64,000 nucleotides of DNA from the NCBI RefSeq assembly GCF_000426705.1, contig NZ_KE384557.1, positions 199,758 to 263,757 of the forward strand, read 5' to 3'. Positions 1-14,607 of this stretch are shown here, one piece after another; positions within the stretch are counted from its first letter, which is position 1; every line of letters starts with the position of its first letter. Both the position numbers and the translations under genes were made by a program. Under the pieces are notes generated by a model. It ran no database searches, was not told the origin of the DNA, and saw only the letters and a program-made list of their open reading frames with translations. This DNA is from Spirochaeta cellobiosiphila DSM 17781 (GTDB lineage Bacteria > Spirochaetota > Spirochaetia > DSM-17781).

Positions 1-902
1 TCATAATTATTCCTTTCATAATAAGTTCTATAGGAATTACATGGGTAAAGCCTTCTATAGTCAAGATGGACTTGGTTCGATCAGTAGTCTGTTTAACTCC
101 TTGGGATTTGAATCATAGAGCTATGATTATGATGCCTTTGGTCAGGCTATTAATGGTAGTTTTGTAGGTCAGAACCAGATGGGATATAATGGTAAAAGAG
201 TCGATAGCTTTACTGGTAAATATGATTATGGTTTCCGAGATTATGATCCTATGAGGATGAGATGGATGACGATAGATCCGATTAAAGATGGGGTTAATTG
301 GTATGTGTATGTTGGGAATGATCCAATTAATTTTATTGATTTGTGGGGGGTGGAAGATATAGTTGTCATAAATATGATAGATAGAGATAATAATTTTAAC
401 AATAGGGCATATAACTTACTCGTTGATACTTCGTTTGATGATATTATTGGAGGTGATGAGGCAACTGCTGAAAACTTAATTAATAATGAATTGACAAATG
501 ATGAATCAAAAAAGAATAGTTGTTGTAGTCCATGGAGATAAAGATGGAAACTTGTATGATACAAACGGGGAGAAAATAGCTCCCAATTCTTTTGAATCAA
601 GTAATACAGGTAGTAACTTAGAAACTATAGATCTTGTAGGATGTTATGCATCAGAAGATGCTGAAACTTAGAAAAAAGCAACTGAGGTATCTGATGTAAG
701 AACTTATAATCCTACTATACCAGATGCTTCTACCATACATTGGAATCAGACTAATGATGCGCTTCAAGATTTGATTCCAGAATCCATAGAAAAAGGAGTG
801 GATAATTCTGGTGAACCTATAAATAAGCCAAATCCTATAACTAGTTGGCTGTCTGATATTGTTGGTAGTGAAGACGGGGGGAGTTTGAATTCTGAAGATT
901 AA
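1..902 (+). pseudogene. Rhs core tip plus caspase-like CT domain, broken (copy 1)
   Basis: The frame is already open at the left window edge. The first part is the conserved end of an Rhs/YD-repeat protein: QDGLGSISSL, YDYDAFGQAI, then YGFRDYDPMRMRW and NDPINFIDLWG, equivalent to the family's RYYDP...NPINFIDPxGL block that ends the Rhs shell. The variable CT toxin domain follows. An in-frame TAG at 116-118 replaces the Glu codon found in copy 2. A one-base shift in the A-run near 509 and a TAG at 669-671 break the CT. Read through these lesions, it gives RIVVVVHG and IDLVGCYAS, the His and Cys motifs of a clan CD (caspase-like) peptidase, and ends with TAA at 900. About 13 residues present in the homologous CT at 9283-9751 are missing after FDDII. 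Family assignment is strong for the Rhs part; protease activity is inference. Confidence 0.85.
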
Positions 903-1833
903 GAGCATTTTACTTTTGTTATTTGTTGCTAGAGTTTCTCTTTTTGCCAGTGGGATATCTGATAATAAATTTGTTTCTAAATTAAATGATCGTTATAACA
1001 TAGATGTAATTACTACATTAAAAGATAGATCTCTTAGTTATACATTTATATCCGATCATGAGTACGTGTATGCAACTTCTAAAAGTTTATGTTTTCTGAA
1101 CTTACTAACTTCAGAAAAAAAACAAATTTCTATTCCCTCTGTAATGTTGGAAAAGAGAATATTAAGTATAAAGAATTTAGATTATGACCATGTGAATAAT
1201 TACTTGTATATGAATTTCATTATCGATGGAAATAAAGATATACACTCTTTTCTTTATAGATACTCTTTAAAGAATAGTAAGTGGGAAGAACTAAAAGAGC
1301 TTTATGATAATGTATACAAATTTAAAAGCCATAATAGTTCTCTAATTTTAACTACGATGAAAGATTCTTATTATTATTTATATAATATTTCAACTGGTTC
1401 TATGGATAATCTAAAAATAGAAAAGCAGAATGGAAGGTTTTTAAATCATGTTCTATCTTTTAATAAATCCACTAATGATTTATTATCTAAATTTATTTTT
1501 GACGATGATAGAGAAATGTATTGTCTATACAATCTTGATTCAGAAGATATAAGATTCTTTGATGCTAGTTGTACCAAGCGTAAAATATCTTTTGAAGATT
1601 ACGCATTGTACGATAACTTTTTTATAGCTCTTAACAAAGTGTACCAATATACTTCAGATATCTATATGTATTCCTTTGCCACATCATCATATAAAGAAAT
1701 ATTAACAGATTTGCCTTTTAGCATTTATTCCTTAAAAAAATACAATCAGGATAAAGTAGTTTTCTTAGCTGTAAATGAACGAACTGATAATATGTTTCTT
1801 TGTACTAAGAAAATTGTTGAAGAAGGTGATTGA
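892..1833 (+). CDS. Secreted candidate immunity protein for caspase-like Rhs CT (copy 1)
   Basis: About 313 residues with no recognised family. It begins with a hydrophobic signal-like segment ending LFASGISD and then shows repeated beta-strand blocks rich in Tyr, Asp and Leu that look propeller-like. Its homologue at 9808 starts with GTG. The aligned codon here is CTG at 892, so initiation may occur at CTG or from TTG at 916, which would lose the charged n-region of the signal peptide. It overlaps the last bases of the CT frame, as toxin-immunity pairs usually do, and it is conserved beside a homologous CT in the other cassette. Role as an immunity protein acting in the periplasm is inferred from this linkage. 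Confidence 0.6.
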   Translation: MKIKSILLLLFVARVSLFASGISDNKFVSKLNDRYNIDVITTLKDRSLSYTFISDHEYVYATSKSLCFLNLLTSEKKQISIPSVMLEKRILSIKNLDYDHVNNYLYMNFIIDGNKDIHSFLYRYSLKNSKWEELKELYDNVYKFKSHNSSLILTTMKDSYYYLYNISTGSMDNLKIEKQNGRFLNHVLSFNKSTNDLLSKFIFDDDREMYCLYNLDSEDIRFFDASCTKRKISFEDYALYDNFFIALNKVYQYTSDIYMYSFATSSYKEILTDLPFSIYSLKKYNQDKVVFLAVNERTDNMFLCTKKIVEEGD

Positions 1834-2131
1834 TGATTAACTGTCCCTTCCCAAAATCTGATCGCATTTTTTCCCAAATTAAATGTGTATGGATTTCCGT
1901 TTAAATCATAAGATTCCCGAATTACAGTAGGATTAGGGTACTCATTTCCAGGTGATATTACAGAAAATCAGATTAGACAAGAGAATGGTTTATGTCAAAG
2001 GGCGGCATATTGATGAAAAATAACTTTCCACTCCAGGAAGAGAAAAATTGTTGAACACTCTAATATACCACTAGTGAAATTAAATACCGTTCCCTTATTA
2101 TCTAAAGAACTAATATCGTTCTTGAATATCA
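1834..2131. other. Degraded intergenic DNA with a possible reverse-strand coding remnant
   Basis: No intact gene. On the minus strand about 1840-1960 one frame stays open and reads PGNEYPNPTVIRESYDLNGN followed by PYTFNLG, which has the flavour of a YD-repeat-like peptide. It has no start and no neighbours in frame. It is probably debris from another Rhs-type or CT sequence; identity is not established. Confidence 0.25.
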
Positions 2132-2662
2132 GTAAGCGTCAAAAAAACATCATAAAAGCTAATATATCAAGTTAAACATTATCTTTACAGTTCCAAGGCA
2201 GAAGTTTTTCCATTCTGTTTTATCAGTAATCAAAGGCACCTGGTTAAAAATATAGGCTAAATACAAATGTGGATTAAGTCCATTCTGTTTTGCGATTTCT
2301 ATCAAGGAGTAGTAAAAACAAGAAGCCTCTGCTCCCTTAGGACTTCCAGAAAATAACCAATTCTTACGACCAACGACAAATGGTCTAATAGCATTTTCAG
2401 CTCCATTATTGTCTGGGGTTAACTGGGTACAATCTATATACTTCATTATCTTACTCCATTGTCCAAGGGCATATGATATGGCTTCTCCTGTTCTACTTGA
2501 ATCTCTAACCGTTAAGGATTTTTTAGCTAGCCATTGTTTTAACTCCTTTAGTAACGGTAGAATCTTAATCTTTCTTTGTTCTAAGAACTCTTCTTGTGAG
2601 GAAGCTAATTCTCTAAGTTCTTTCTCAGTTTTATGGTGGCCGGAAATTCCTAGCGCACGATA
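2132..2662 (-). mobile_element. IS66-family transposase (TnpC) 3' fragment with terminal GTAAGCG
   Basis: The minus-strand frame ending at 2159 contains the diagnostic IS66 C-terminal block: DNNGAENAIRPFVVGRKNWL, then FSGSPKGAEAS, SLIEIAKQNGLNP and YLAYIFNQVP. Just outside the stop, at 2132-2138, lies GTAAGCG, the typical end of IS66 inverted repeats, so the element's 3' boundary is visible. The fragment is cut at about 2662, where IS30 sequence begins in the opposite orientation. Only the last roughly 160 residues remain of a protein normally near 500, so it cannot transpose itself. Confidence 0.85.
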
Positions 2663-3216
2663 ATAAGTGTAATAGCAGAGTATGATCATCTGAAGCAACG
2701 TCGCTATCAATGTCCTAAGCTTAAAATAACAAAAGAAGATTGGAAGCGTATTATACCAAAACTTGAATTGAGATGGTCTCCAAATCAAATTGCTGAATTG
2801 TTTAAAAGGGATTATCCTACTCAAAGTATGAGCGGGAAAACCATTTATAACTGTATCCACTTTCATATGCATGGGGAACTGAAAAGGCTTGCTCTAAAAG
2901 ATCTGTGCCAAAGAGGGACACAACATAAAACCTCAATAAATAGAGATAAACGTGGCAAAATCAAGAGTATGACGTTAATAGATGATCGCCCAACTGAAGT
3001 AGAGTCCAGAGAAGTACCAGGCCATTGGGAAGGAGATCTAATCATAGTAAATGTGTCATTGTAGAAAGACAAAACCGTTACATTCAATTAGAACTTTTAA
3101 CAAAATATGATGCCACAACAGTAAGAAAAACAATTGAAAAACGCTTCAAGAGAATTGAACCACACCTGAGAAAAACCTTGACCTTAGATCAGGGAACGGA
3201 AATCCAGATTCTCTAA
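2663..3216 (+). mobile_element. IS30-family transposase remnant, frameshifted
   Basis: The plus-strand frame from about 2663 reads LRWSPNQIAELFKRDYP, SGKTIYNCI and then GHWEGDLI, the order expected in IS30 transposases (helix-turn-helix, then the first DDE Asp in the GHWEGD block). A small deletion near 3049 shifts the frame. Downstream, KCVIVERQNRYIQLELL and RKTLTLDQGTE follow in another frame and correspond to the second catalytic region. The N-terminus and the last third are missing. The remnant abuts the IS66 fragment on one side and a CT-like tail on the other. Confidence 0.85.
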
Positions 3217-3248
3217 AAGTAACGATTGAAGATAAGGAAACAAATTAG
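3205..3248 (+). pseudogene. Possible tail of a lost Rhs CT module
   Basis: After the IS30 homology ends, one frame reads NGNPDSLKVTIEDKETN and stops at TAG 3246-3248, directly against the ATG of the next gene. The same stop-against-start arrangement is seen at the other CT/immunity junctions, so this may be the surviving end of a CT whose front was replaced by the IS. This is positional inference from a very short stretch. Confidence 0.25.
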
Positions 3249-4019
3249 ATGAAAAAGGTTATGTTATTTATATCTCTAATTCCACTAGTTAGCTGTCTCT
3301 GGGCAAATGACCTTATCGGTAAAAAATATAATAGTCGAACAGGATACATCTCCTTTTCTGATTCAAAACTTGAATATGTTGCTATAAATTTAGAAGATAG
3401 GTCAAAGACAGAAATAAGGGCTGATTATGAAGTTCAAAAAAAAGATGGATTGAGTTACCTAGTATTTACCTTAAACCAAGAAGAACAGAAATGGTTGATG
3501 CTTTATTCTGAAGATATTTTGATCTTATATTCAAATGAAACTGATTACCCTTTTTTTATTGGGATTCCATCAAAACCATCAAAATTGGAAGGACTTTATA
3601 TTGATCCAGATATTTTTAGTGCCACTAGTGAATTGAAAAAAGGGGAGACCATTTTTTCTCCCAAAAATCTTGGTTTGGTGAAGCTAGATACACCATGGGT
3701 GGAGGGTGTGAACTCTGTTGGTATTGGAGAAAGCATCGAAATAAATTCTTACAATGCTAATTCTTTTATTTTAAGTAATGGTTTTGTCAGTTACCGCAAA
3801 CCTCATCTTTTCAGAATGAATTCAAGATTGAAGATGGTTTTGATTGAAGATTTAGAGAATAATACTTCTAAAGAATATTCTATTCCTGATTCTCCAGATC
3901 CTGTTACAATAAGACTTGAAAAAGCATCAACTAAGGTTCGTATTTCAATATTAGATGTTTATCCAGGTGAGAAATGGGAGGATACCTGTGTTAACTTCAT
4001 TCTCATAAAGGCATTCTAA
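3249..4019 (+). CDS. Secreted protein with C-terminal NADase-type glycan-binding (discoidin-like) domain
   Basis: 256 residues. Residues 1-20 form a signal peptide (MKKVMLFISLIPLVSCLWA); the Ser-Cys could be a loose lipobox, so it may be a lipoprotein. The middle has no recognisable domain. Residues about 150-256 carry PWVEGVNSVGIGE, ILSNGFVSYRKPHLF, NSRLKMVLI and ISILDVYPGEKWEDTCVNFI, the pattern of the F5/8-type (discoidin-like) domain first described at the translocation end of NAD glycohydrolases. The gene at 4980 has the same C-terminal domain. It sits where candidate immunity genes sit in this region, but no function can be shown. Confidence 0.75.
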   Translation: MKKVMLFISLIPLVSCLWANDLIGKKYNSRTGYISFSDSKLEYVAINLEDRSKTEIRADYEVQKKDGLSYLVFTLNQEEQKWLMLYSEDILILYSNETDYPFFIGIPSKPSKLEGLYIDPDIFSATSELKKGETIFSPKNLGLVKLDTPWVEGVNSVGIGESIEINSYNANSFILSNGFVSYRKPHLFRMNSRLKMVLIEDLENNTSKEYSIPDSPDPVTIRLEKASTKVRISILDVYPGEKWEDTCVNFILIKAF

Positions 4020-4319
4020 TCGATAAGCTCATCAGATAAACCAAGGTTTATGGGTACTTGTTAGCTTACTTAGCTAGACTCCTATTGGCTTGTTCTCCTC
4101 CGATAATTTAGGTGTCTTTAAAATATATCCAAAAGATATGGAAGCATAAGAATTGATAATGTCGAATATACCTGAACTTGTAAATGATGTTATAGTTACC
4201 GGTGGACATGGTAGTGATGCTTTTAATTTAATAGAACCAGCTTTTATAGTGCCCCTAAAAAGTTGTACATCTTGCTGTGTAATGGACAGCAGAAGGAGTA
4301 CAACAGCTGCAAAAGAAGT
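4020..4319. other. Degraded spacer between secreted-protein gene and IS3 remnant
   Basis: No intact gene. One plus-strand frame reads LGVFKIYPKDMEA, a stop, then SNIPELVNDVIVTGGHGSDA, suggesting the end of a decayed protein, possibly another CT fragment. No RNA structure or repeat was recognised. Confidence 0.3.
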
Positions 4320-4650
4320 GGAGTGATTCAGAAAAAGCCAGAATAGCACTATGGCAATTCGAGAAGAGAAACCTATCATCGAAATAGCTCAAGAAACTGG
4401 AGCTCATCCCAACATGATTTCAAAGTGGAAAAGGGAACTTCTCTATGAAGCAGATTCGGCCTTTAGAAATGGGAAATTTGTTCAGGAACAGGACCTTGAA
4501 AAAGTGTGGGATGCGCTTTTCAAACAGATTTGAAGACTCCGTGCAGAGAATGATTTCCTAAAAAAATTTGAAGAAAATGGGACTCCTATGAAGTCCATGA
4601 TTGAACCAGAGCGTGAAGACCTTCAGATCGTCTTTTTCATCATGCACATA
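4320..4650 (+). mobile_element. IS3-family OrfA and start of OrfB, decayed
   Basis: The frame around 4351-4533 gives IIEIAQETGAHPNMISKWKR, the helix-turn-helix of IS3-type OrfA proteins. After a TGA at 4531-4533 the same frame continues RLRAENDFLKK, the OrfA C-terminal leucine-zipper end. Then KSMIEPEREDLQI follows, matching the usual start of OrfB (MIDPEHxxLSIRRQ). A TGA near 4327 also interrupts the front. Only about 300 bases remain and no inverted repeats are visible. Confidence 0.8.
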
Positions 4651-4979
4651 AATTAGCTTAAAGGGTGATTCCTATAGAATTACGCTTTAGTTGATGGCTT
4701 AGATTTTCTTGAATGTGTTTTGGAATCTGATTTTAATAAAAAGGATTCTTTATGGAATCCTATATTAATATTAGACCATTAGAAATAGTAATGATTCTCT
4801 AGATCAGGTGTACATTGACTATCAAGGTAGATATTCTCACAAAGTTTATGTAATCGATGAGAATAAAGAGTTTAATACCTCATTACATTAATTCTTATAT
4901 ATCAGATCAAAGAATGATAGAATAAACAATCAGGTATTGTTATTATTTATTTAGTAAAAATAGTTAATAAGGTAATGAA
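4651..4979. other. Non-coding or decayed sequence upstream of the 4980 gene
   Basis: Two short open stretches occur (VDGLDFLECVLESDFNKKDS, and SLDQVYIDYQGRYSHKVYVI), each closed by stops. They look like pieces of former genes. No strong promoter or terminator was recognised, and there is no clear Shine-Dalgarno before 4980 beyond AAGGTAATGAA. Confidence 0.3.
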
Positions 4980-6191
4980 ATGAAAAGGTTTTTCTGGGTA
5001 ATGACAATCTTTCTTTCTTTTAATACTGTATATGCAGAGGACCAAAGTGCTCTCATAATATATACATATACTCCCATAACTAGAGCAATTAATACTATTT
5101 ATGAAGTAGATTTTTATAGTGATGGCTTAGTAAAAGAAATCAGAAAATATCTTAACCCACAAGATAGAACTATACCTACCTCAGAATTGAATAAATTAAA
5201 TGATATAAGACTATTAGAAACAATCAGTGTTAGCAGATCAGATTCTAGAATATCTGTGTATAAGAAATCGAAGAACGCAACAAAAGAATTGATTGAATAT
5301 TATGATTATCTAAATAGCGGAATGATTCAACGAATGAAAGTGAATGATTTGCAAACAAGCAGATTAATAGAGATTTATGATAACTATGGTAGCTTTAATT
5401 ATAATTACAAAAATGAACTTACTTTTTCTTTTAGTAATGAAAAAAACAAAATGACTTGGGAATACCCTACCCATAAAAGTATTACTAGCTATTTAATTAG
5501 TGATAATGCTAGTCTTGAAAAAATCATAATAGATGAACCCAAAAATATTAGTTGGATTAATATTACTCATTCTAAGTCAAATGAATACCAAATCGAAAAC
5601 CGTGATGATGAATTTGAGCCTTTTATATCAAAGTATGACATTTTTAATTCTGGGGATTATGAGATATCTCCCATGACAGTCCCAATAAATTTATTTTTAT
5701 GTCCCAATGATACAACTAATAAAATAACAGCTTTCTTTATTAGAAATGTATTTGATAGGAATAGAGATGTTCTACGTGCTGGAAAAACGTATGAATCATC
5801 TTCCATTCTTGTAGAAGGAACTATTAACTATAAAGCTAGTAATCTAGGAAATTCTCTTTTTGCAAAACCTTGGGTAGAAGGAGTTAATGGGTATGGTATC
5901 GGTGAAACTATAACAATTAGTGATGATAGGGAATTTACTGAATTAATTCTATCCAATGGATATAAATCCTATGATAATCCAACACTATATGAAAAGAATA
6001 GTCGATTAAAAAAGATTCAAATAAAAGGAATGGATACGGAAACTGTTCTTGATGTTGACATTAAGGATTCCTCTGGGCCTCAGAGTATCAAACTACCAAA
6101 ATCTGAGACTAAAGTTGTGATTACTATTTTAGATATCTATCCTGGTTCAACGTGGGAAGATACATGTGTGAACTATATTTTGGTTAGATAG
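4980..6191 (+). CDS. Secreted protein with C-terminal NADase-type glycan-binding (discoidin-like) domain
   Basis: 403 residues. A clear signal peptide covers residues 1-19 (FFWVMTIFLSFNTVYA, then EDQ). The central about 270 residues are rich in Tyr, Asn and Ser and have no recognisable family. Residues about 295-403 contain KPWVEGVNGYGIGE, LILSNGYKSYDNPTLY, NSRLKKIQI and VITILDIYPGSTWEDTCVNY, closely parallel to the domain ending the gene at 3249. The two genes therefore share a tail and differ in front. Export is likely; ligand and role are unknown. It precedes a Rhs tip copy and may be a former cassette partner. Confidence 0.75.
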   Translation: MKRFFWVMTIFLSFNTVYAEDQSALIIYTYTPITRAINTIYEVDFYSDGLVKEIRKYLNPQDRTIPTSELNKLNDIRLLETISVSRSDSRISVYKKSKNATKELIEYYDYLNSGMIQRMKVNDLQTSRLIEIYDNYGSFNYNYKNELTFSFSNEKNKMTWEYPTHKSITSYLISDNASLEKIIIDEPKNISWINITHSKSNEYQIENRDDEFEPFISKYDIFNSGDYEISPMTVPINLFLCPNDTTNKITAFFIRNVFDRNRDVLRAGKTYESSSILVEGTINYKASNLGNSLFAKPWVEGVNGYGIGETITISDDREFTELILSNGYKSYDNPTLYEKNSRLKKIQIKGMDTETVLDVDIKDSSGPQSIKLPKSETKVVITILDIYPGSTWEDTCVNYILVR

Positions 6192-6265
6192 GTATATTTT
6201 GAAAACAAAATTTAAAGCTCGTTATATAACTATTTAGTTATGAGATAGAAAAGAATAGAGTCTAA

Positions 6266-7206
6266 GAGGTCAAAACTAATAGGGTTTTTAATCTCACTAG
6301 TGAATATCTAAGAACTAATGGTCATTTCGTAAGTCGAACAGATTCTACCAATCATAATTATTCCTTTCATAATAAGTTCTATAGGAATTACATGAGAAAA
6401 GCTTTTTATTGTCAAGATGGCCTTGGTTCGATCAGTAGTCTGTTTAACTCCTTGGGATTTGAATCAGAAAGCTATGATTATGATGCCTTCGGTCAGGCCA
6501 TTAATGGTAGTTTTGTAGGACAGAACCAGATGGGATATAATGGTAAAAGAGTCGATAGCTTTACTGGTAAATATGATTATGGCTTCCGAGATTATGACCC
6601 TATGAGAATGAGATGGACGACAATAGATCCTATTAAAGATGGTTCTAATTGGTATGTGTATGTTAGGAATAATCCTATTAATTTTATTGATTTGTGGAGG
6701 TTGAGCGCTACTACTGAGAATGATGGAATTCAAATTGACTCTCAAACGGCTATTCAGGTTGGTGCACAAGTAGGCGCAAATATAATTGAATCAGAGTTAA
6801 ATCATGTAAAAAATATTATTGATCCTAGTCGAAATATTGTACAGAAAGGTATTGAGGCAAATCTAATAAATCTAGATTTACATACCCAAAATATTGATGA
6901 TACCATGGAGATACTGGAAGGAACAGGTAGTAAGACTACAAATTTTCCAGAACAAATTCAGGTGATTATACTGATGTGTATGTCAATAAGTCTATATCTA
7001 CAGCAACTGAGGGATCTGTAAAATCTCTTATTCGACCAGATGTAATGGGTAAGAAAGAAGATGCTACTATAGATGTAGTAGAGGTTGCAAGTACAAAAAC
7101 ACAGACAGAGACAATGCTTGAAGCTAAGGTCGCGATTATTGAAATGAGATTAGGTGATTTATCGGGGGATAGCTCTGTTCTTATACCAGAAGGAACAAGT
7201 AAATGA
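6266..7206 (+). pseudogene. Rhs core tip plus nuclease-like CT domain, frameshifted (copy 2)
   Basis: The frame is open from about 6266 and holds the longest Rhs tip of the window: KFYRNYMRKAFYCQDGLGSI, YDYDAFGQAI, DYDPMRMRWTTIDPIKDG and NPINFIDLW. Bases 6352-6700 are nearly identical to 1-350. The CT then runs through SATTENDGIQID and a helical stretch. A one-base shift near 6955-6961 breaks it. In the next frame it continues as DVYVNKSISTATEGSV, LIRPDVMGKKEDATIDVVEV and ASTKTQTETMLEAK, ending 7206. RPDV...IDVVEV followed by a Ser/Thr/Gln run resembles restriction-endonuclease-fold polymorphic toxins with a degenerate PD-(D/E)XK motif. The nuclease call is moderate inference. Confidence 0.8.
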
Positions 7207-8003
7207 AAAGAAATGTGTCGCTAGTTACCTATGTTGAAAAGTCAGTAAATAGTCAAAGCATTGAAACATTTTTTCCAATTATAGATAGCTTTAAGAAGTG
7301 CTTCAAAAGTAATGAATTTAACTATACGCGAATATCTGGTTTTGATTTAAGAGATGATTTAGCGATATTAAATGCATTAAGTAATCCTCCAGTTTATAAA
7401 TTTGATTTGTTTGATGAGAAAGCTATTAAAGATAGTTTATCATGTACAATTGAAGAAGATCTATTCATTTACTCAATCACCTCGGCTTCTAAGAGTTTAA
7501 AAAATGACTTTGTGTTTAGTTATATGAATCAGGAAATGGTAAAAAAGTCGAGATATAAACGGATTTATTTACAGTTTCCATTTAAAATTAATAATATTGA
7601 TTTTGATGAAGTTTTAAGCCACTTGAATAGCGAATTTGTATTGAAAAATGCATTTATTGAAGTAATGGATGGGGATATTTTAGCAAGTTCCTATTTTAAT
7701 GAAATCTTAACACCAAATATTACTGTGGAGCAAAAAGATGATCTTAGACAATGGAAAAAAAACCTTAAGAAGTTAGATTCAATTTTTAGGAATGTTTTTT
7801 ATGGTAATATTATTACTAATTCAATGATAACAGAAGTGAATGGACTAAAACGAATATCTACTTCACTAGATAGATTAAACATATATAACAGATTTATTGA
7901 TAAAAATATTTTATATTTTGAATGGCAGCAAAAAGAAGATATTGTGCCTAAGTCAGAACTTATACATCTCTTGAGGGAATCTGGTGTGCACTTTTCTAAT
8001 TAG
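7203..8003 (+). CDS. Candidate cytoplasmic immunity protein for the nuclease-like CT
   Basis: 266 residues, starting at an ATGA overlap with the stop of the preceding CT, the classic toxin-immunity coupling. It has no signal peptide and no membrane segment. It is rich in Asp, Asn, Phe and Lys, with a helical pattern and no family that I recognise. A cytoplasmic location would fit a toxin acting on nucleic acid, in contrast to the exported partners of the other CTs here. The reading frame is intact although the upstream toxin is frameshifted. The immunity role is inferred only from position. Confidence 0.65.
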   Translation: MKRNVSLVTYVEKSVNSQSIETFFPIIDSFKKCFKSNEFNYTRISGFDLRDDLAILNALSNPPVYKFDLFDEKAIKDSLSCTIEEDLFIYSITSASKSLKNDFVFSYMNQEMVKKSRYKRIYLQFPFKINNIDFDEVLSHLNSEFVLKNAFIEVMDGDILASSYFNEILTPNITVEQKDDLRQWKKNLKKLDSIFRNVFYGNIITNSMITEVNGLKRISTSLDRLNIYNRFIDKNILYFEWQQKEDIVPKSELIHLLRESGVHFSN

Positions 8004-8113
8004 AATATTGTAAGCCAATATTACAGGTGATTTGTATGTAGATACTTATTTTGCTTTTTCTATTAATTATAGGAATCATGACGGACACATTGAATAAATA
8101 TTCATAATCATAC

Positions 8114-9268
8114 CTGTCCAAAATAAATCACTTCAATAAACAGGACCTAACTGTCCAGTATTTCTTTCACTAAAATCATCGATTAATTTAGGCTTATTTA
8201 GCCATATCCATATATCTTGTTTTATGAATAGTAAAGTAGATATTATGACCATTAAAGATTGTACGGTCCAATTTCGATTCGCTTCTTTTGCTATATATTT
8301 TAATAACAAACTGGTTATCATACATATCAAGATTTGTGTCATGACGGCGTTTTGACTAGTACCGAGAAAGCTTTTAATCTTTAGATTCTGCTTAATTGTC
8401 TTAAAGAGGATTTCTATTTGCCATCTATCCTTGTAAATTGCTGCTATTGTCTTGGCAGACCATGTCAATTGATTTGTTAATAGGCGTATGGTCTTGTTTG
8501 TATCAGGATCATAACTTTCTACAATCCTTATAGGTAGAATATCCAGCCATTTTTATATCCTGATCACAATTTATATTTTCATAATGATCAACATCATAGT
8601 CTTCAAGTATGTCAAAGACTGAATTGGATTTTAACCTAGTCACAAAATAAATACCTCTAGCGCAATAGTTTGAAAAGATCTTAAAGCTATTGTAGCCTCT
8701 ATCAAATACTAAACTGTCACCGGATTGAACCTTCATTTGTGTTAACTGATTTACTTCATGTTCTTTAGCGTCTGTCATGGTTAAAACAGAAGGAATATAT
8801 CCTGAGTGATTGCGTTTGACATGGAGTTTAATTCCTCCTTTCTTTTTTCTAAAAGAAGCCCAAGGAAACATATTCAAACATAAGTCTATCGTGGTTTCAT
8901 CAATACTATTCATAGATTTTAGAATCACGGTTCTTATTAGCATAGGATAGTGTAGATCTTTTGACTTTGGATAATCCCATATGATAGAGCTTGCTATTAT
9001 TGACTTCTAGTCCTTTTTGTCCTGAAAGATGAGCAAACAGCATTGCAGTAAATTGGTTCCTACAGCTAAATCCTTTGGAGTGAAAGTCTCCTTTATACTT
9101 TTTAACTAACTTAGCAAAATCATGTCTTGGAATAAATTGAAGAAGTTGTGAAAAAGTGGTATTTGATGTCTTATTAGCCGATTCCCTTTTATAGTAATCT
9201 TTTAGTCAATTTTATTTTAATTGGAGATCGATTTTTATAATACACTTTTTAGTATTTATTTTGGACAG
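8114..9268 (-). mobile_element. IS4-family insertion sequence with 14-bp inverted repeats, transposase broken
   Basis: CTGTCCAAAATAAA at 8114-8127 is the exact inverted complement of 9255-9268, giving an element of about 1.15 kb. The minus strand encodes an IS4-type transposase. Its N-terminal part (about 9210-8950) reads QLLQFIPRHDFAKLVKKYKG then SGQKGLEVNNSKLYHMGLSK. The middle holds DETTIDLCLNMFPWASFR and VFDRGYNSFKIF, and the end holds YKDRWQIEILFKTIKQNLKI, the DDE Glu block. Frame breaks near 8943 and 8500 separate these, so it is inactive. No target-site duplication is visible, suggesting later rearrangement. Its right end cuts into a CT gene. Confidence 0.88.
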
Positions 9269-9751
9269 CTGTGGGCATATAACTTATTTGTTGATACTAC
9301 GTTTGATGATATTATTGAAGCTGCTGAAAGTAAAGGAGAAACTGTAAGAGTCGTTGGAGGTGATGAGGCAACTGCTGAAAACTTAACTAATAATGAATTG
9401 ACAAATGATGATACACAACGTTTAATTGTTGTAGCTCACGGCGGAAGCTCAGGAAGCTTTTATGATACAAATGATGACCCAATTGACTTATCTTCATTTG
9501 ACTTAAGTAATACAGGAAGTATTATGACAACAATTGATCTTGTAGGATGCTATGCGTCTACTGGTTCAGGATATTGGGAAACTCAAACAGGATTATCAGA
9601 TATAAGGACATATAATCCTTCTTCCCCTTCTTCTCCAATTCATTGGAATCAGACCAATGATACTCTTCAGGATTTGATTCCAGAATCCATAGAAACAGGA
9701 GTCGATAATTCTGGTGAACCAATTAATAAGCCATATATGATTTATATCTAA
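9221..9751 (+). CDS. Orphan caspase-like Rhs CT domain truncated by IS4
   Basis: The first 18 codons come from the IS4 end; homology with copy 1 starts at AYNLFVDTTFDDII (about 9280). The domain retains EAAESKGETVRVV and GGDEATAENL, then TQRLIVVAHGGSSG and TIDLVGCYASTG. This order, an AT-x-x-NL helix, a beta strand ending in HG, and a strand ending in GC, is that of caspase/C14-like peptidases, with His about 72 and Cys about 108 as the likely dyad. A shift near 9750 replaces the original C-terminus, whose stop would lie at about 9816, overlapping the next gene. The Rhs shell is absent, so it is probably not delivered or expressed normally. Confidence 0.7.
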   Translation: MEIDFYNTLFSIYFGQLWAYNLFVDTTFDDIIEAAESKGETVRVVGGDEATAENLTNNELTNDDTQRLIVVAHGGSSGSFYDTNDDPIDLSSFDLSNTGSIMTTIDLVGCYASTGSGYWETQTGLSDIRTYNPSSPSSPIHWNQTNDTLQDLIPESIETGVDNSGEPINKPYMIYI

Positions 9752-9807
9752 TGTAATAAAATTTGTTTCTGAGATCGTAGGATCTAAAGAAGAGGGAAGC
9801 TTGAATT

Positions 9808-10696
9808 GTGAGAGTTAAGATCAGTATACTTTTGTTATCGATTGGTTTACTTCCCCTTTGTGCCAGTGGAATATCTGATAATAAGTTTGTGTATAAATTA
9901 AATGATCGTTATAGGATAGATGTAATAAGTACCTTAAACGATAGTCCTAATACACATGAGTTTATATCTGATCATGAGTATGTGTATGCGACTCATTCAA
10001 ATGAAAAGATATTATTGGATTTACCAATTAGATTAAAAGAGGAAGTGATTTTAAGTATTAATAATCTTAATTACGATAATATAAGCAAGACTATTTGGTT
10101 ATCAGTTATTGTAAAAGGTGATAAGGAAATTCTTATGTTACTTTTTTATTATTCATTAGAACATAATGAATGGAAAGAAGTTCCTGATTTATATGATACT
10201 GTATATAAGTTTGTAGTTAATAATAATTTTTTAATTATAAGCGCACAAAGAGAACCATATTATCGTACCTATGATATTTTAAATCAGTCAGTGAAGGATC
10301 TTAATATAGAAAGAGATACGGGAAGATTTTTCAATTCCATTCTATCTTTTAACATAGAAAATCAGAATATATTGTTAAAGTTTATTTCTAATGATGGTAG
10401 AGAAAAATATTGTCTATATAATTGGTATTCACAAGATATGAATTTCTATGATGATCCTTTTTATGATCGCAGAGTATCTTTTGATGATTACACATTGTTC
10501 GATAACTTTTTTATAGCGGTAAACAGACAACACCAATATACCTCAGATATTTATTTGAAACCTCATCATATAAAGAAATATTAACAGATTTACCTTTTGA
10601 AGTATATTCTTTAAAAAAGTACGATCAAGATAGAGTGGTTTTCTTAGTTGTAAATGATGTAACAAATCATGCATTTCTTTGTACTAAAAAATTTTG
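9808..10696 (+). pseudogene. Secreted candidate immunity protein (copy 2), frameshifted
   Basis: It starts at GTG 9808 inside the end of the CT frame. The signal peptide is MRVKISILLLSIGLLPLCAS, possibly a lipoprotein through LPLC. The rest is clearly homologous to the 892-1833 protein: ISDHEYVYAT, LYDTVYKF, and DNFFIAVNRQHQYTSDIY. A 10-base deletion at about 10553, relative to copy 1, shifts the frame after SDIY. The lost end LTDLPFEVYSLKKYDQDR continues in another frame to a TGA at about 10694-10696. About 10 residues near EYVYAT are also missing relative to copy 1. Confidence 0.75.
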
Positions 10697-10819
10697 ATGA
10701 CATATAATAATCCCCCAAGAGTTAAGAGTCGATATTTGTAGAAAATTCGTAGATGTCAAAATCTTCACTCCTACAATTGCTTAAGTTAAATCTAGTGTCA
10801 TCTTTGTAGAGGGGCAATC

Positions 10820-10879
10820 ATGAAAAGAACAGGAAAGCAGATGACTGAACATCTTGAAACATGGAAAAGATCTGGTTGA
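10820..10879 (+). pseudogene. IS66 TnpA-like N-terminal fragment
   Basis: ATG opens MKRTGKQMTEHLETWKRSG then TGA. This matches the usual start of the IS66 accessory protein TnpA (KxGKEWxEHLxxWxxSGL). A ribosome-binding-like AGAGGGG precedes it. Only 19 codons remain; it may come from the same IS66 family whose TnpC end lies at 2132-2662. Confidence 0.55.
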
Positions 10880-10953
10880 AATGAATCAAGTGTTACTAAC
10901 GCGTTTTTTCCCTGGACTTGGGGAAGGACTTTGTCCAGATAGATAATTCCTAA

Positions 10954-11753
10954 CTGTTCTATCAATCACTCTATTCTTGGAAACGAACTTATGACGAGCA
11001 TGGTCGATTGTCTATAGAAACAGATCCCATGAATAATGAAACACAATATACCTATGATGCCTTCGGTCAGGCCATTAATGGTAGTTTTGTAGGACAGAAC
11101 CAGATGGGATATAATGGTAAAAGAGTCGATAGCTTTACTGGTAAATATGATTATGGCTTCCGTGATTATGACCCTATGAGAATGAGATGGACGACGATAG
11201 ATCCTATTAAAGATGGGGCTAATTGGTATGTGTATGTTGGGAATGATCCTATTAATTTTATTGATTTGTGGGGGTTGGATACACTGACAACCTACAATAA
11301 GGATCCAACTCCTGGAAGTGATATAATAGTTGATGAGTATGGTAATCCTGGCCATACATGGATTTGTATAGATACCGATGAAGATGATGATAAATGGTTT
11401 GGATAGGGACATCCTAATAATGAAGATCCATCTATTGATGGAGTGAACAAGTTAATGAGGGTTCAGGCCATAACTATGGTGGAAGCCAGTCTGATGAAGA
11501 GGCAATGATGTGTTCAGAGGCGGTCGCTGATTGTTTAAAAGAGACAGATACTTTGACAAGCGAATAGGAAGCTATAATAGATGATGGATTGGATGAATGG
11601 AGTAATCATTTTCCTGATCCTGTACCAGAATCTTTAGAAGAAATAGCAAAGAAAGTCGGTGAAGATACTAATCCAAATCCTAGTAGTATGGAAGATATTA
11701 TAAGCGAATTAAATGAGTCAAAAGGAGCCTGTGTTGGAAAAAGTAAAAATTAA
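10954..11753 (+). pseudogene. Recombinant Rhs tip plus decayed CT domain (copy 3)
   Basis: The frame opens at 10954 with a genuine YD repeat (RTYDEHGRLSIETDPMNNET, then QYTYD) fused directly to DAFGQAINGSF. The DGLGSISSL segment seen in copies 1 and 2 is skipped, so a deletion between two TATGATGCC-like sites probably made this joint. DYDPMRMRWTTIDPIKDG and NPINFIDLWGL follow. The CT starts DTLTTYNKDPTPGSDIIVDE and GNPGHTWICIDTD. A TAG at 11404, a shift near 11450 and a TAG at 11565 break it before TAA near 11751. GHTWI is typical of several papain-like or hydrolase toxin domains, but the class is not secure. Confidence 0.8.
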
Positions 11754-12780
11754 AAGTAGATACTCTATACTTTTTCTTTTTATCTACTTAGTAATGGCTC
11801 CAAGTTTAAGTGCAGACAATTTCAAGGTCTTTCAAAAATTGGAACCAGAAGTAGATAACATGGAATTAGAACTTAATCCAGAGCGTACTCTATTCTTTTA
11901 TGATCTAAGTGGTTCTAACAGACAAAAGGAAAATATTTTACAAGTAACTCTTCCCACAATGGAAGAGTCTTTAGCTCACACTGATTCAAAACTTAATCCT
12001 GCGGAGGTATTATATGGCTTTTATAATCCAAATACAAACGAGTCTTATTGCTATCTGATGCCAGTTGATACTTCTGATTATCCGCAAGGTTGGTATAAAC
12101 TTCACTATGTTAACGAAGTATTAAGTTTTGTTAAAAATAAAGCTATGCTAAAATATTTCCATCGCTATCGAAGCCAAACTATCTTTTCGATTCCTGGTAC
12201 TAATGATTTACTTAGCTCTCAATATGAAATTAATATAAATGGTGATAAATTAAAACATGAGAGTATTCGCATTATTTCCCAAGTAGGGCAAAAAGTAATA
12301 TGGAGTTTATCTCCTGATCCAAAGGAATTAAAAGAATACCATAACGCTTTGTGGATTAAGGATACTTGGTTGCTCATAGAGGATCTAGGTATTATCAAAA
12401 CTGATGAAACATATGTTGATACTTTGGTGAATTATAAAAATGGTCAGGTAAAATCTTTTGCTCCTGATATAATCATTGGAAATGGAAATAAAAATATAAT
12501 TACAACATCTAAGGATCTAATGGGAATTAATGTACAAGATCCCTATGGGAATATAGAATATAAAGATAGCAATTTAGATCTCATTCAACCAATTCGTGAT
12601 AAATTCGGATATGATGGCTTTCTATACTTTGCCTATTATGATCCTCCGTACCTATATTATGAAGTTTATGATGGGTTCGGTTTTTATGCTCCTATTTTCA
12701 GTGTTATAATAGATCTCATTAACAAAAAATCTTACTACAATATGGGTAGTAGATACTCTTCTATTCTTGGTGTTTTTTAG
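11734..12780 (+). CDS. Secreted candidate immunity protein for CT copy 3
   Basis: About 348 residues. ATG 11713, GTG 11731 and TTG 11734 are all in frame; GGAG at 11724-11727 is ideally spaced for TTG 11734, so I place the start there, still overlapping the CT frame. A signal peptide follows (YSILFLFIYLVMAPSLSA, then DNF). The mature protein is rich in Tyr, Asn and Asp, with beta-strand-like repeats such as LWIKDTWLLIEDLG and YDGFLYFAYYDPP. No known domain was recognised. The frame is intact while the adjoining CT is decayed, as with most candidate immunity genes here. The function is inferred from linkage. Confidence 0.6.
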   Translation: MEKVKIKSRYSILFLFIYLVMAPSLSADNFKVFQKLEPEVDNMELELNPERTLFFYDLSGSNRQKENILQVTLPTMEESLAHTDSKLNPAEVLYGFYNPNTNESYCYLMPVDTSDYPQGWYKLHYVNEVLSFVKNKAMLKYFHRYRSQTIFSIPGTNDLLSSQYEININGDKLKHESIRIISQVGQKVIWSLSPDPKELKEYHNALWIKDTWLLIEDLGIIKTDETYVDTLVNYKNGQVKSFAPDIIIGNGNKNIITTSKDLMGINVQDPYGNIEYKDSNLDLIQPIRDKFGYDGFLYFAYYDPPYLYYEVYDGFGFYAPIFSVIIDLINKKSYYNMGSRYSSILGVF

Positions 12781-12802
12781 TTTGAGAGAGTAGTAAAACT
12801 TT

Positions 12803-12907
12803 ATGTCAATGTTTAATATGAATACAATAAGAAATGCACTATTTGAGTTCTATGACGTGGTTATAGTTAAAAGTGAGAAATATACTAAAAAACCTGATTT
12901 ATTTTAA
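12803..12907 (+). CDS. Possible 34-residue ORF, unknown
   Basis: ATG to TAA encodes MSMFNMNTIRNALFEFYDVV followed by a Lys-rich end. It has no clear ribosome-binding site and no recognised family. It could equally be a remnant; it is listed because it fills the gap between the immunity candidate and the Yip1-like gene. Confidence 0.15.
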   Translation: MSMFNMNTIRNALFEFYDVVIVKSEKYTKKPDLF

Positions 12908-12936
12908 CTCGGGTAAAAATACTGGTAGGTCCCAAA

Positions 12937-13503
12937 ATGATTAAAGATATAATTTTAGCTCCTTTCTTAATACTAATACAACCAAAGACTAATTGGGAAA
13001 AGTTAAAGAGTCTTGATATTAATAAGTTTGGTCTAATAATTTATTACTTTTCTACATCAATAGTAATAACTTTGTTCACTACTCTATTAGCAGTATGGGG
13101 TAGGCCATTATGGGGCGTTGGATCAGCTCTACACAGTTTCCTTTTTGTTTCTGAACTTACTCTGATAATGATCCTAACTGACCTAGCATTATTTCTCAGT
13201 CTAAATATCATACTCAAAGTTTTTGATATAAAACCAGAAGAAATTGATATTATGAAGCTAGTTTGTTTTTCAAAAATGCCATTTCTAATATCTAAGCTCA
13301 TAAATGTATTTTTTTCTCTCGGCTCTTTTGTCTTCGTACCATTTTTATATAACCTTGTATTAATCTTATTTGGAGTAAAGGTTTTATGGGAACTAACATC
13401 GAAGGATTCCTTTTTGGTATCTGTTAGCTGTTATGCAATATATTTAACATCTTATATTCCATTAACATTTTTCCTTAAGTGGTTGTTGTTGACTACAATT
13501 TAG
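12937..13503 (+). CDS. Yip1-like integral membrane protein
   Basis: 188 residues with about five hydrophobic helices (about 30-50, 68-90, 115-140, 143-155, 163-185). The opening IILAPFLILIQPKTNWEKLK is typical of bacterial Yip1/YIP-domain proteins (xPxxxFxxIxxxPxxxW). The role of bacterial members is not known. A shortened second copy of part of this gene lies at about 14640-14740. It is flanked by Rhs debris on both sides and could be a cassette passenger or an immunity protein against a membrane-active CT; neither is shown. Confidence 0.65.
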   Translation: MIKDIILAPFLILIQPKTNWEKLKSLDINKFGLIIYYFSTSIVITLFTTLLAVWGRPLWGVGSALHSFLFVSELTLIMILTDLALFLSLNIILKVFDIKPEEIDIMKLVCFSKMPFLISKLINVFFSLGSFVFVPFLYNLVLILFGVKVLWELTSKDSFLVSVSCYAIYLTSYIPLTFFLKWLLLTTI

Positions 13504-13583
13504 CTTGTTCGCAATATTTATTCAGTTTAATTGAATACAAAATTGTAGTTGTATTGTTTATATTGTGGTAGCACAATGAACAG

Positions 13584-13948
13584 AGAAGTTATGATTATGA
13601 TCCCATGAGGATGAGATGGAGGACGATAGATCCTATTAAGGATGGGGCTAATTGGTATATGTATGTTGGGAATGATCCTATTAATTTTATTGATCCTTTT
13701 GGATTAGCTGAAGTAGAGGAAAATGATGTAGATCCACAGGTAGTTGATGATCTTTTCGATTTCCATTTTGATATTATGTCTTGGAACACAGCGTTAGAAA
13801 ATGAAAAAAAACAACAGGACAGAATGGCGAATCCTGGGATAGCACTGATGGGATACAAGATCCTCCCGAACAAGAAGTGCGTTCTATTGATAATCCACTA
13901 AATAATAATTGGACTTATGTTCCATTACCAGATTTGTATAGGAGTTAG
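13584..13948 (+). pseudogene. Shortened Rhs tip plus CT remnant (copy 4)
   Basis: The tip reads RSYDYDPMRMRWRTIDPIKD then NDPINFIDPFGL. SYDY from the YDYDAFG motif is joined directly to DPMRMRW, omitting the roughly 40 residues between them in copies 1 and 2, so it was probably produced by deletion across a short repeat. The CT begins AEVEENDVDPQVVDDLFDFH. A one-base shift near 13838 breaks it. In the next frame it ends DPPEQEVRSIDNPLNNNWTY with TAG at 13946, two bases before the following ATG. The CT class is not recognised. Confidence 0.75.
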
Positions 13949-13950
13949 CC

Positions 13951-14607
13951 ATGAAAAAAATTATATTTTGTGTATACATTCTTTTAATATCAACAGCTTG
14001 GTCTGAAACGGTATCCTTAGAACTCATAGGATTGAATCAATCAAAGACTATACATGTTAATAGTGATATTGTAGAACTTAAACTTACCAAGCCGGATATG
14101 ATAGTGCCTAACTTAGTCAGTATCAGAGGATTGGACTCTCTTAAACGGTTAGATAGCTTAAGTATAGAGTTTTCTAATTTAACTAATTTTGAAAATATAT
14201 GGAGACATTTTAATGGAATAACTGAACTTCACTTGGGGTTTGTTACATTACAAGATTTAAATTTTCTTAAAGAATTGACTTCATTAAAAAGGTTGCATTT
14301 GTATGAAGGAATTAATATTCAAAATATGAACATTAACTTAAATAGCTCAAGTAAATTAGAGTATATTCAAATATGGGGATATACATTAGATATGATTCCC
14401 ACTATTAACAATCCTCCATCTAGTTTCGGATATTTAGATATTGCTTGGAGTAAATTACCTGTTGGATTTAGTTATACCGATTTTTCAAATAACATAATGT
14501 ATGTCATAAATGATGATGACTATGAAAAATTAAATAGAAGTTTAGATAATGTAATGGGATATGGTAATGCAAAAAAACTACTATCATATTATCAATATTT
14601 AGAATGA
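13951..14607 (+). CDS. Secreted leucine-rich-repeat-like protein, candidate immunity protein
   Basis: 218 residues. It has a signal peptide of about 18 residues (IIFCVYILLISTAWS). Residues about 60-150 show irregular leucine-rich repeats: LDSLKRLDSLSIEFSNLTNF, ITELHLGFVTLQDLNFLKEL and TSLKRLHLYEG. It starts two bases after the stop of the fourth CT and has GGAG upstream, so it is positioned as that CT's partner. LRR-like folds commonly bind proteins, which would suit an immunity role, but that is inference. Confidence 0.65.
   Translation: MKKIIFCVYILLISTAWSETVSLELIGLNQSKTIHVNSDIVELKLTKPDMIVPNLVSIRGLDSLKRLDSLSIEFSNLTNFENIWRHFNGITELHLGFVTLQDLNFLKELTSLKRLHLYEGINIQNMNINLNSSSKLEYIQIWGYTLDMIPTINNPPSSFGYLDIAWSKLPVGFSYTDFSNNIMYVINDDDYEKLNRSLDNVMGYGNAKKLLSYYQYLE

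What the first reader, a model, noticed from the sequence alone, without database searches (positions are those of the whole stretch)
9283..9751. Caspase-like peptidase domain as an Rhs CT toxin, present twice
Seen: an AT-x-x-NL helix, a strand ending HG and a strand ending GC occur in this order in two homologous CTs (358-902 broken, and 9283-9751). Known: this is the layout of clan CD (caspase/C14/CHAT) peptidases with a His-Cys dyad. Inferred: the CT is a cysteine protease effector. Caspase-like CTs are uncommon among characterised Rhs toxins.
Basis: partly seen in the sequence, partly recalled or inferred. Interest (0 to 1): 0.65.

Follow-up and report, generated by a model that had tools for sequence, protein, structure and literature searches.

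The report
Decayed caspase-like Rhs toxin tip pair
Two decaying copies of a toxin-tip cassette in a bacterial chromosome carry what is probably a caspase-like protease domain next to its immunity gene, but neither copy still encodes a complete toxin and the fold is supported only by sequence pattern, so this is a modest find.

Summary
The ORF at 9221-9751 and the broken copy at 358-902 are homologous C-terminal Rhs-type tips that share a strand ending in His-Gly and a strand ending in Gly-Cys. They travel with homologous immunity-like genes. Divergence between the copies is mostly synonymous, so the domain was once a selected protein. A profile of clan CD peptidases (Peptidase_C14) from related genomes ranks this ORF first of 180 protein windows and above all 300 shuffles, with His on the catalytic His. 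The best Pfam match of the copy-1 core is Peptidase_C80, also clan CD, but below cut-off. Neither copy is an effector now. Copy 2 lost its 5' part and Rhs core to an IS4-family element; copy 1 lacks 13 codons, is frameshifted and has a stop. Caspase-like Rhs tips were already described (Tox-Caspase, Zhang et al. 2012). Verdict: probable, degenerate, orphan member of a known kind. The immunity-like genes start with signal-peptide-like stretches, hinting at a target outside the cytoplasm.

The parts
50..346 (+). end of an Rhs core, with an in-frame stop, directly in front of copy 1
   Evidence: tblastn 94% to the core at 6401-6697; TIGR03696 3e-17 on ORF 179-541
349..902 (+). copy 1 of the tip: keeps a first strand-like stretch (DIVVINMID), lacks 13 residues present in copy 2, changes frame near 503-510, stop TAG at 669-671
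   Evidence: translations; second frame also seen in the genome search with 1 TAG inside
510..668 (+). copy 1 His-Cys core (KRIVVVVHG...ETIDLVGCYAS)
   Evidence: ORF 498-671: Peptidase_C80 E 0.056, 14.2 bits, cut-off 23.8, profile 54-112/154; piece 510-668: E 0.18, profile 58-112
895..1833 (+). intact candidate immunity gene 1, overlapping the end of copy 1, signal-peptide-like N-terminus
   Evidence: open frame of 314 aa; hydrophobic N-terminus; 48% identity to gene 2
8109..9273 (-). IS4-family insertion element with split transposase frames; lies where the 5' part of copy 2 should be
   Evidence: 20-nt inverted ends, 90%; transpos_IS4_1 3e-18 and 6e-24
9275..9751 (+). copy 2 of the tip, 5'-truncated; predicted helix-strand-helix-strand, His codon 9437, Cys codon 9548
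9808..10691 (+). candidate immunity gene 2, broken by a frame change near 10530-10590
   Evidence: tblastn of gene 1 in two frames, 9862-10590 and 10527-10691

Best explanation
The feature is the remnant of a polymorphic-toxin cassette: an Rhs C-terminal tip of about 180 residues with a caspase-like (clan CD) cysteine-peptidase core, followed by its immunity gene. Inferred mechanism: an Rhs shell carried the tip to a neighbouring cell. There His55 activated Cys92 (P0001 numbering), at the ends of adjacent parallel strands, to cut target proteins. The downstream gene product, exported by a signal peptide, protected the producer, which points to a target in the periplasm or cell surface. Shown: two homologous copies, His and Cys conserved, past purifying selection, linkage to the Rhs core end (copy 1) and to the immunity-like gene (both), damage in both copies. 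Inferred: the fold, proteolysis, toxicity, target compartment. Today neither copy encodes the full domain.
For: C14 core profile built from 20 loci of related genomes: score 21.8, first of 180 protein windows, 0 of 300 shuffles as high, alignment of residues 5-60 with His55 on the catalytic His (earlier untrimmed runs). Peptidase_C80 is the only Pfam family hit by the copy-1 core. Motif rarity. dN/dS well below 1 in the middle and C-terminal pieces. Secondary structure in both poor models is helix 10-19, strand 23-27, helix 34-38/39, strand from 48; a strand 87-92 appears in the trimmed model only. The tip is the last domain of its protein with nothing after it but an immunity-like gene, the position that Zhang et al. 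read as a toxin rather than a releasing peptidase.
Against: No match passes a curated threshold; the C14 alignment covers only the N-terminal half and a global alignment is poor (score 9.9, Cys not aligned to Cys). The intact-ORF copy 2 itself gives no C80 or C14 Pfam hit. AlphaFold is uninformative (pLDDT 38-40) and the fold search found no caspase. Only two copies in one genome exist as an alignment. The immunity-like genes have no trusted Pfam match.
Confidence: 0.62

Rival explanations
1. The tip is some other alpha/beta enzyme or binding domain (for example a Rossmann-like or hydrolase-like toxin), and the HG and GC pairs are not a catalytic dyad.
For: No trusted family match; structure uninformative; strand-HG and strand-GC can occur in other parallel alpha/beta folds.
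Against: Motif is rare; both residues kept while this piece is only 58% identical; C14 profile rank 1 of 180.
Confidence: 0.25
2. A caspase-like releasing peptidase that cut the Rhs protein itself rather than a toxin, with the true toxin part lost.
For: Zhang et al. report most caspase domains of polymorphic toxins as releasing peptidases placed before a separate toxin domain.
Against: In copy 1 only 76 residues follow the stop and no further domain is seen (no Pfam hit); the immunity-like gene follows at once in both copies.
Confidence: 0.08
3. A divergent L,D-transpeptidase-like (YkuD) cell-wall toxin, like other tips of this genome, which also use a His and a GC motif.
For: YkuD-like tips occur on contig C1 of the same genome next to exported proteins (weak YkuD matches, E 0.09).
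Against: From general knowledge YkuD has SxGC within about 20 residues of HG; here 37 residues separate His and Cys and the motif is LVGC; no YkuD hit to either copy.
Confidence: 0.05

Closest known systems
Tox-Caspase polymorphic toxin domain (Zhang et al. 2012, PMC3482391)
   Same: caspase-like alpha/beta domain with H and C, C-terminal position, Rhs carrier, immunity gene downstream
   Different: the paper's phyletic list for Tox-Caspase does not name spirochaetes and its listed immunity is Imm36; here the immunity-like gene has no trusted family match and both tips are broken; no sequence-level comparison with that set could be made
Pfam Peptidase_C80 (PF11713), self-cutting peptidase of large secreted toxins
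   Same: strand-HG followed by a strand ending in GC; weak profile match spanning both
   Different: score 14.2 below the 23.8 cut-off; here the domain is terminal, not internal; copy 2 gives no match
Pfam Peptidase_C14 / metacaspases (PF00656)
   Same: co-linear helix-strand-T-helix-strand-HG order, His on His
   Different: shorter His-Cys spacing (37 residues, against about 45 or more in the C14 segments listed), LVGC instead of LDAC/LDSC, no hmmscan hit
DUF4347 (PF14252)
   Same: an example in a same-class genome has the order SHGG...WGC (L058)
   Different: no profile match to the window tip; comparison by eye only
Cpe1 interbacterial cysteine protease toxin (PMC12136450)
   Same: cysteine-protease toxin with immunity protein; relatives can be carried by Rhs
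   Different: papain-like, not clan CD; acts on the cytoplasmic topoisomerases GyrB and ParE

Membership tests
clan CD (caspase-like) peptidases | catalytic His after a hydrophobic strand (HG) and Cys after the next core strand ([AGS]C), His first | tested here: met
   H55-G56 and G91-C92, kept in both copies
clan CD (caspase-like) peptidases | alternating strand-helix order before the His strand | tested here: inconclusive
   C14 profile aligns residues 5-60 co-linearly, rank 1 of 180; predicted elements agree but confidence is very low; first strand present only in copy 1
clan CD (caspase-like) peptidases | caspase fold with His and Cys adjacent in space | tested here: inconclusive
   two AlphaFold runs too poor; fold search best E 1.2, no caspases
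Peptidase_C80 | match above the Pfam gathering score | tested here: not met
   14.2 against 23.8 bits for the copy 1 piece, none for copy 2
Peptidase_C14 | match above the Pfam gathering score | tested here: not met
   no hmmscan hit
Rhs polymorphic toxin tip | variable tip directly after the conserved Rhs core end | tested here: met
   copy 1: TIGR03696 then the tip; copy 2 has no core next to it, an IS lies there instead
Rhs polymorphic toxin tip | immunity gene directly downstream | tested here: inconclusive
   homologous genes follow both copies and move with them; protection not testable
Tox-Caspase | toxic and proteolytic activity | not testable with these tools
   needs experiment

The most novel reading that the evidence does not exclude
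An orphan clan CD toxin family with a new, exported immunity partner, acting outside the cytoplasm: a caspase-like protease toxin aimed at the periplasm or cell surface of competing bacteria.
Probability: 0.25. Interest if true: 0.5.

Novelty: new member of a known kind. Interest (0 to 1): 0.28.

Why it matters
Caspase-like domains have been predicted as C-terminal toxins of Rhs proteins (Zhang et al. 2012). If this one is real it adds an unrelated sequence family with an exported immunity partner, which would make the question of where such proteases act testable. Because both copies are damaged, the practical value lies in finding an intact relative.

Tried and rejected
Relatives of the tip were sought in plasmids and phages, IMG/VR, genome contigs with two conserved pieces, and 98 plus 393 genomes of the class and phylum: none found outside this genome. 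The collection scans need near-exact words of 7-8 residues, so distant relatives could be missed. Relatives were also sought through the immunity-like gene: only one weak 48-residue match. PDB sequence searches gave nothing. Other weak profile hits (Swi3, bMG3, SDR, PHROGs of unknown function) were rejected as chance: scattered and not shared by both copies. Imm51 and Kelch hits to immunity-like gene 1 are sub-threshold, and gene 2 has none. The untrimmed C14 profile was misled by signal peptides and was redone on the core. CHAT and DUF4347 were fetched, but no profile comparison was made with them. L022 and L023, called by Peptidase_C80 in other genomes, were weak and showed no clear motif.

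Full report
What is in the sequence. The frame 9275-9751 encodes 158 residues with a helix-like stretch FDDIIEAAESKGETVRVVGGDEATAENL, then RLIVVAHGG, then TTIDLVGCYAS. Copy 1 at 349-902 follows the end of an Rhs core (TIGR03696) and carries the same elements in broken form: 13 residues absent, a change of frame near 503-510 and a TAG at 669-671. The core in front of it also has a stop. The pieces of copy 1 were searched apart throughout.

Copy 2 is not an Rhs protein any more. An IS4-family element with 20-nt inverted ends lies at 8109-9273, and the homology to copy 1 starts at its inner edge. No Rhs core lies next to it. The TTG start listed for ORF 9221-9751 is inside the IS end. Copy 2 thus lacks what would be the first strand, which copy 1 still has (DIVVINMID). 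Neither copy holds the full domain.

The cassette. DNA homology of about 70% runs through the tip and the next gene (405-1823 against 9273-10700). That gene is intact after copy 1 (open frame of 314 aa) and frame-broken after copy 2. Both have a positively charged, then hydrophobic N-terminus ending in LFASG or LCASG, read here as a signal peptide by inspection only. The tips show dN/dS of about 0.34 overall and the next genes about 0.43, so both were once selected proteins. The first 32 aligned codons are nearly identical (dS 0.05) while the rest has dS of about 0.7-0.9, which suggests recombination between the copies near the tip's start.

Is it caspase-like? For: the strand-HG...strand-GC pattern was found in 0.05% of shuffles and in no other of 159 ORFs, although the pattern was written after seeing the sequence. 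Among the fetched loci it otherwise picked out mainly true C14 proteins. A C14 core profile from 20 loci of related genomes scored copy 2 first of 180 protein windows and above all 300 shuffles, aligning residues 5-60, mostly outside the motif used before, with His55 on the C14 His. Peptidase_C80, also clan CD, is the only Pfam hit of the copy-1 core, at 14.2 bits against a cut-off of 23.8, with a shorter piece at 12.5 bits. Against: nothing passes a threshold, the Cys half does not align in the global comparison, and copy 2 alone gives no C80 or C14 hit.

AlphaFold on copy 2 with the pieces of copy 1 as alignment gave pLDDT 38.2, and a trimmed version 39.7. Foldseek against the PDB gave a best E of 1.2 with unrelated folds. 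The likely cause is the lack of relatives: none in phages, plasmids, IMG/VR, genome contigs, or several hundred genomes of the class and phylum.

What is known. Zhang et al. 2012 (PMC3482391) list Tox-Caspase with H and C, Rhs carriers and Imm36. They state that most versions are releasing peptidases but that C-terminal versions are likely to act as toxins. Their phyletic list for it does not name spirochaetes. An Rhs-compatible cysteine-protease toxin with known targets, Cpe1, is papain-like (PMC12136450). The class is therefore known, and the sequence family appears new. The taxon of this genome was not established here; its gene content suggested a spirochaete to me, which is a guess.

Setting. 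The genome has 13 Rhs core ends but only one RHS_repeat match. It therefore seems to hold orphan tips rather than full Rhs proteins, unless the long genes fell into assembly gaps. Several tips elsewhere in the genome have weak YkuD matches, and exported proteins with a NADase_transloc domain occur in the same array, in line with toxins acting outside the cytoplasm.

Noticed in passing
whole genome G000; window 1-14000: 13 Rhs core-end matches but only one RHS_repeat match in a 96% complete assembly: apparently only orphan Rhs tips remain, or full-length genes fell into assembly gaps.
   Followed up: partly
L020 (G000:C1:298000-312000), 3756-4088, 5827-6192 and 10019-10564, minus strand: Three related-looking tips, two with weak YkuD (L,D-transpeptidase) matches; each is followed by an exported protein that by eye resembles L020:1158-1991, which matches NADase_transloc (PF25302, 1.7e-25): a possible immunity family.
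   Followed up: partly
3249-4019 and 4980-6191: Two exported proteins with the NADase_transloc F5/8 type C domain (3e-15, 2e-19) and no toxin tip in front: possibly immunity genes that outlived their toxins.
   Followed up: no
407-502 against 9275-9409: First 32 aligned codons of the two tips nearly identical while the rest is far diverged: sign of recombination between cassettes.
   Followed up: partly
3249-14607: Most genes that look like partners of Rhs tips here begin with a signal-peptide-like stretch; 7203-8003 does not.
   Followed up: no
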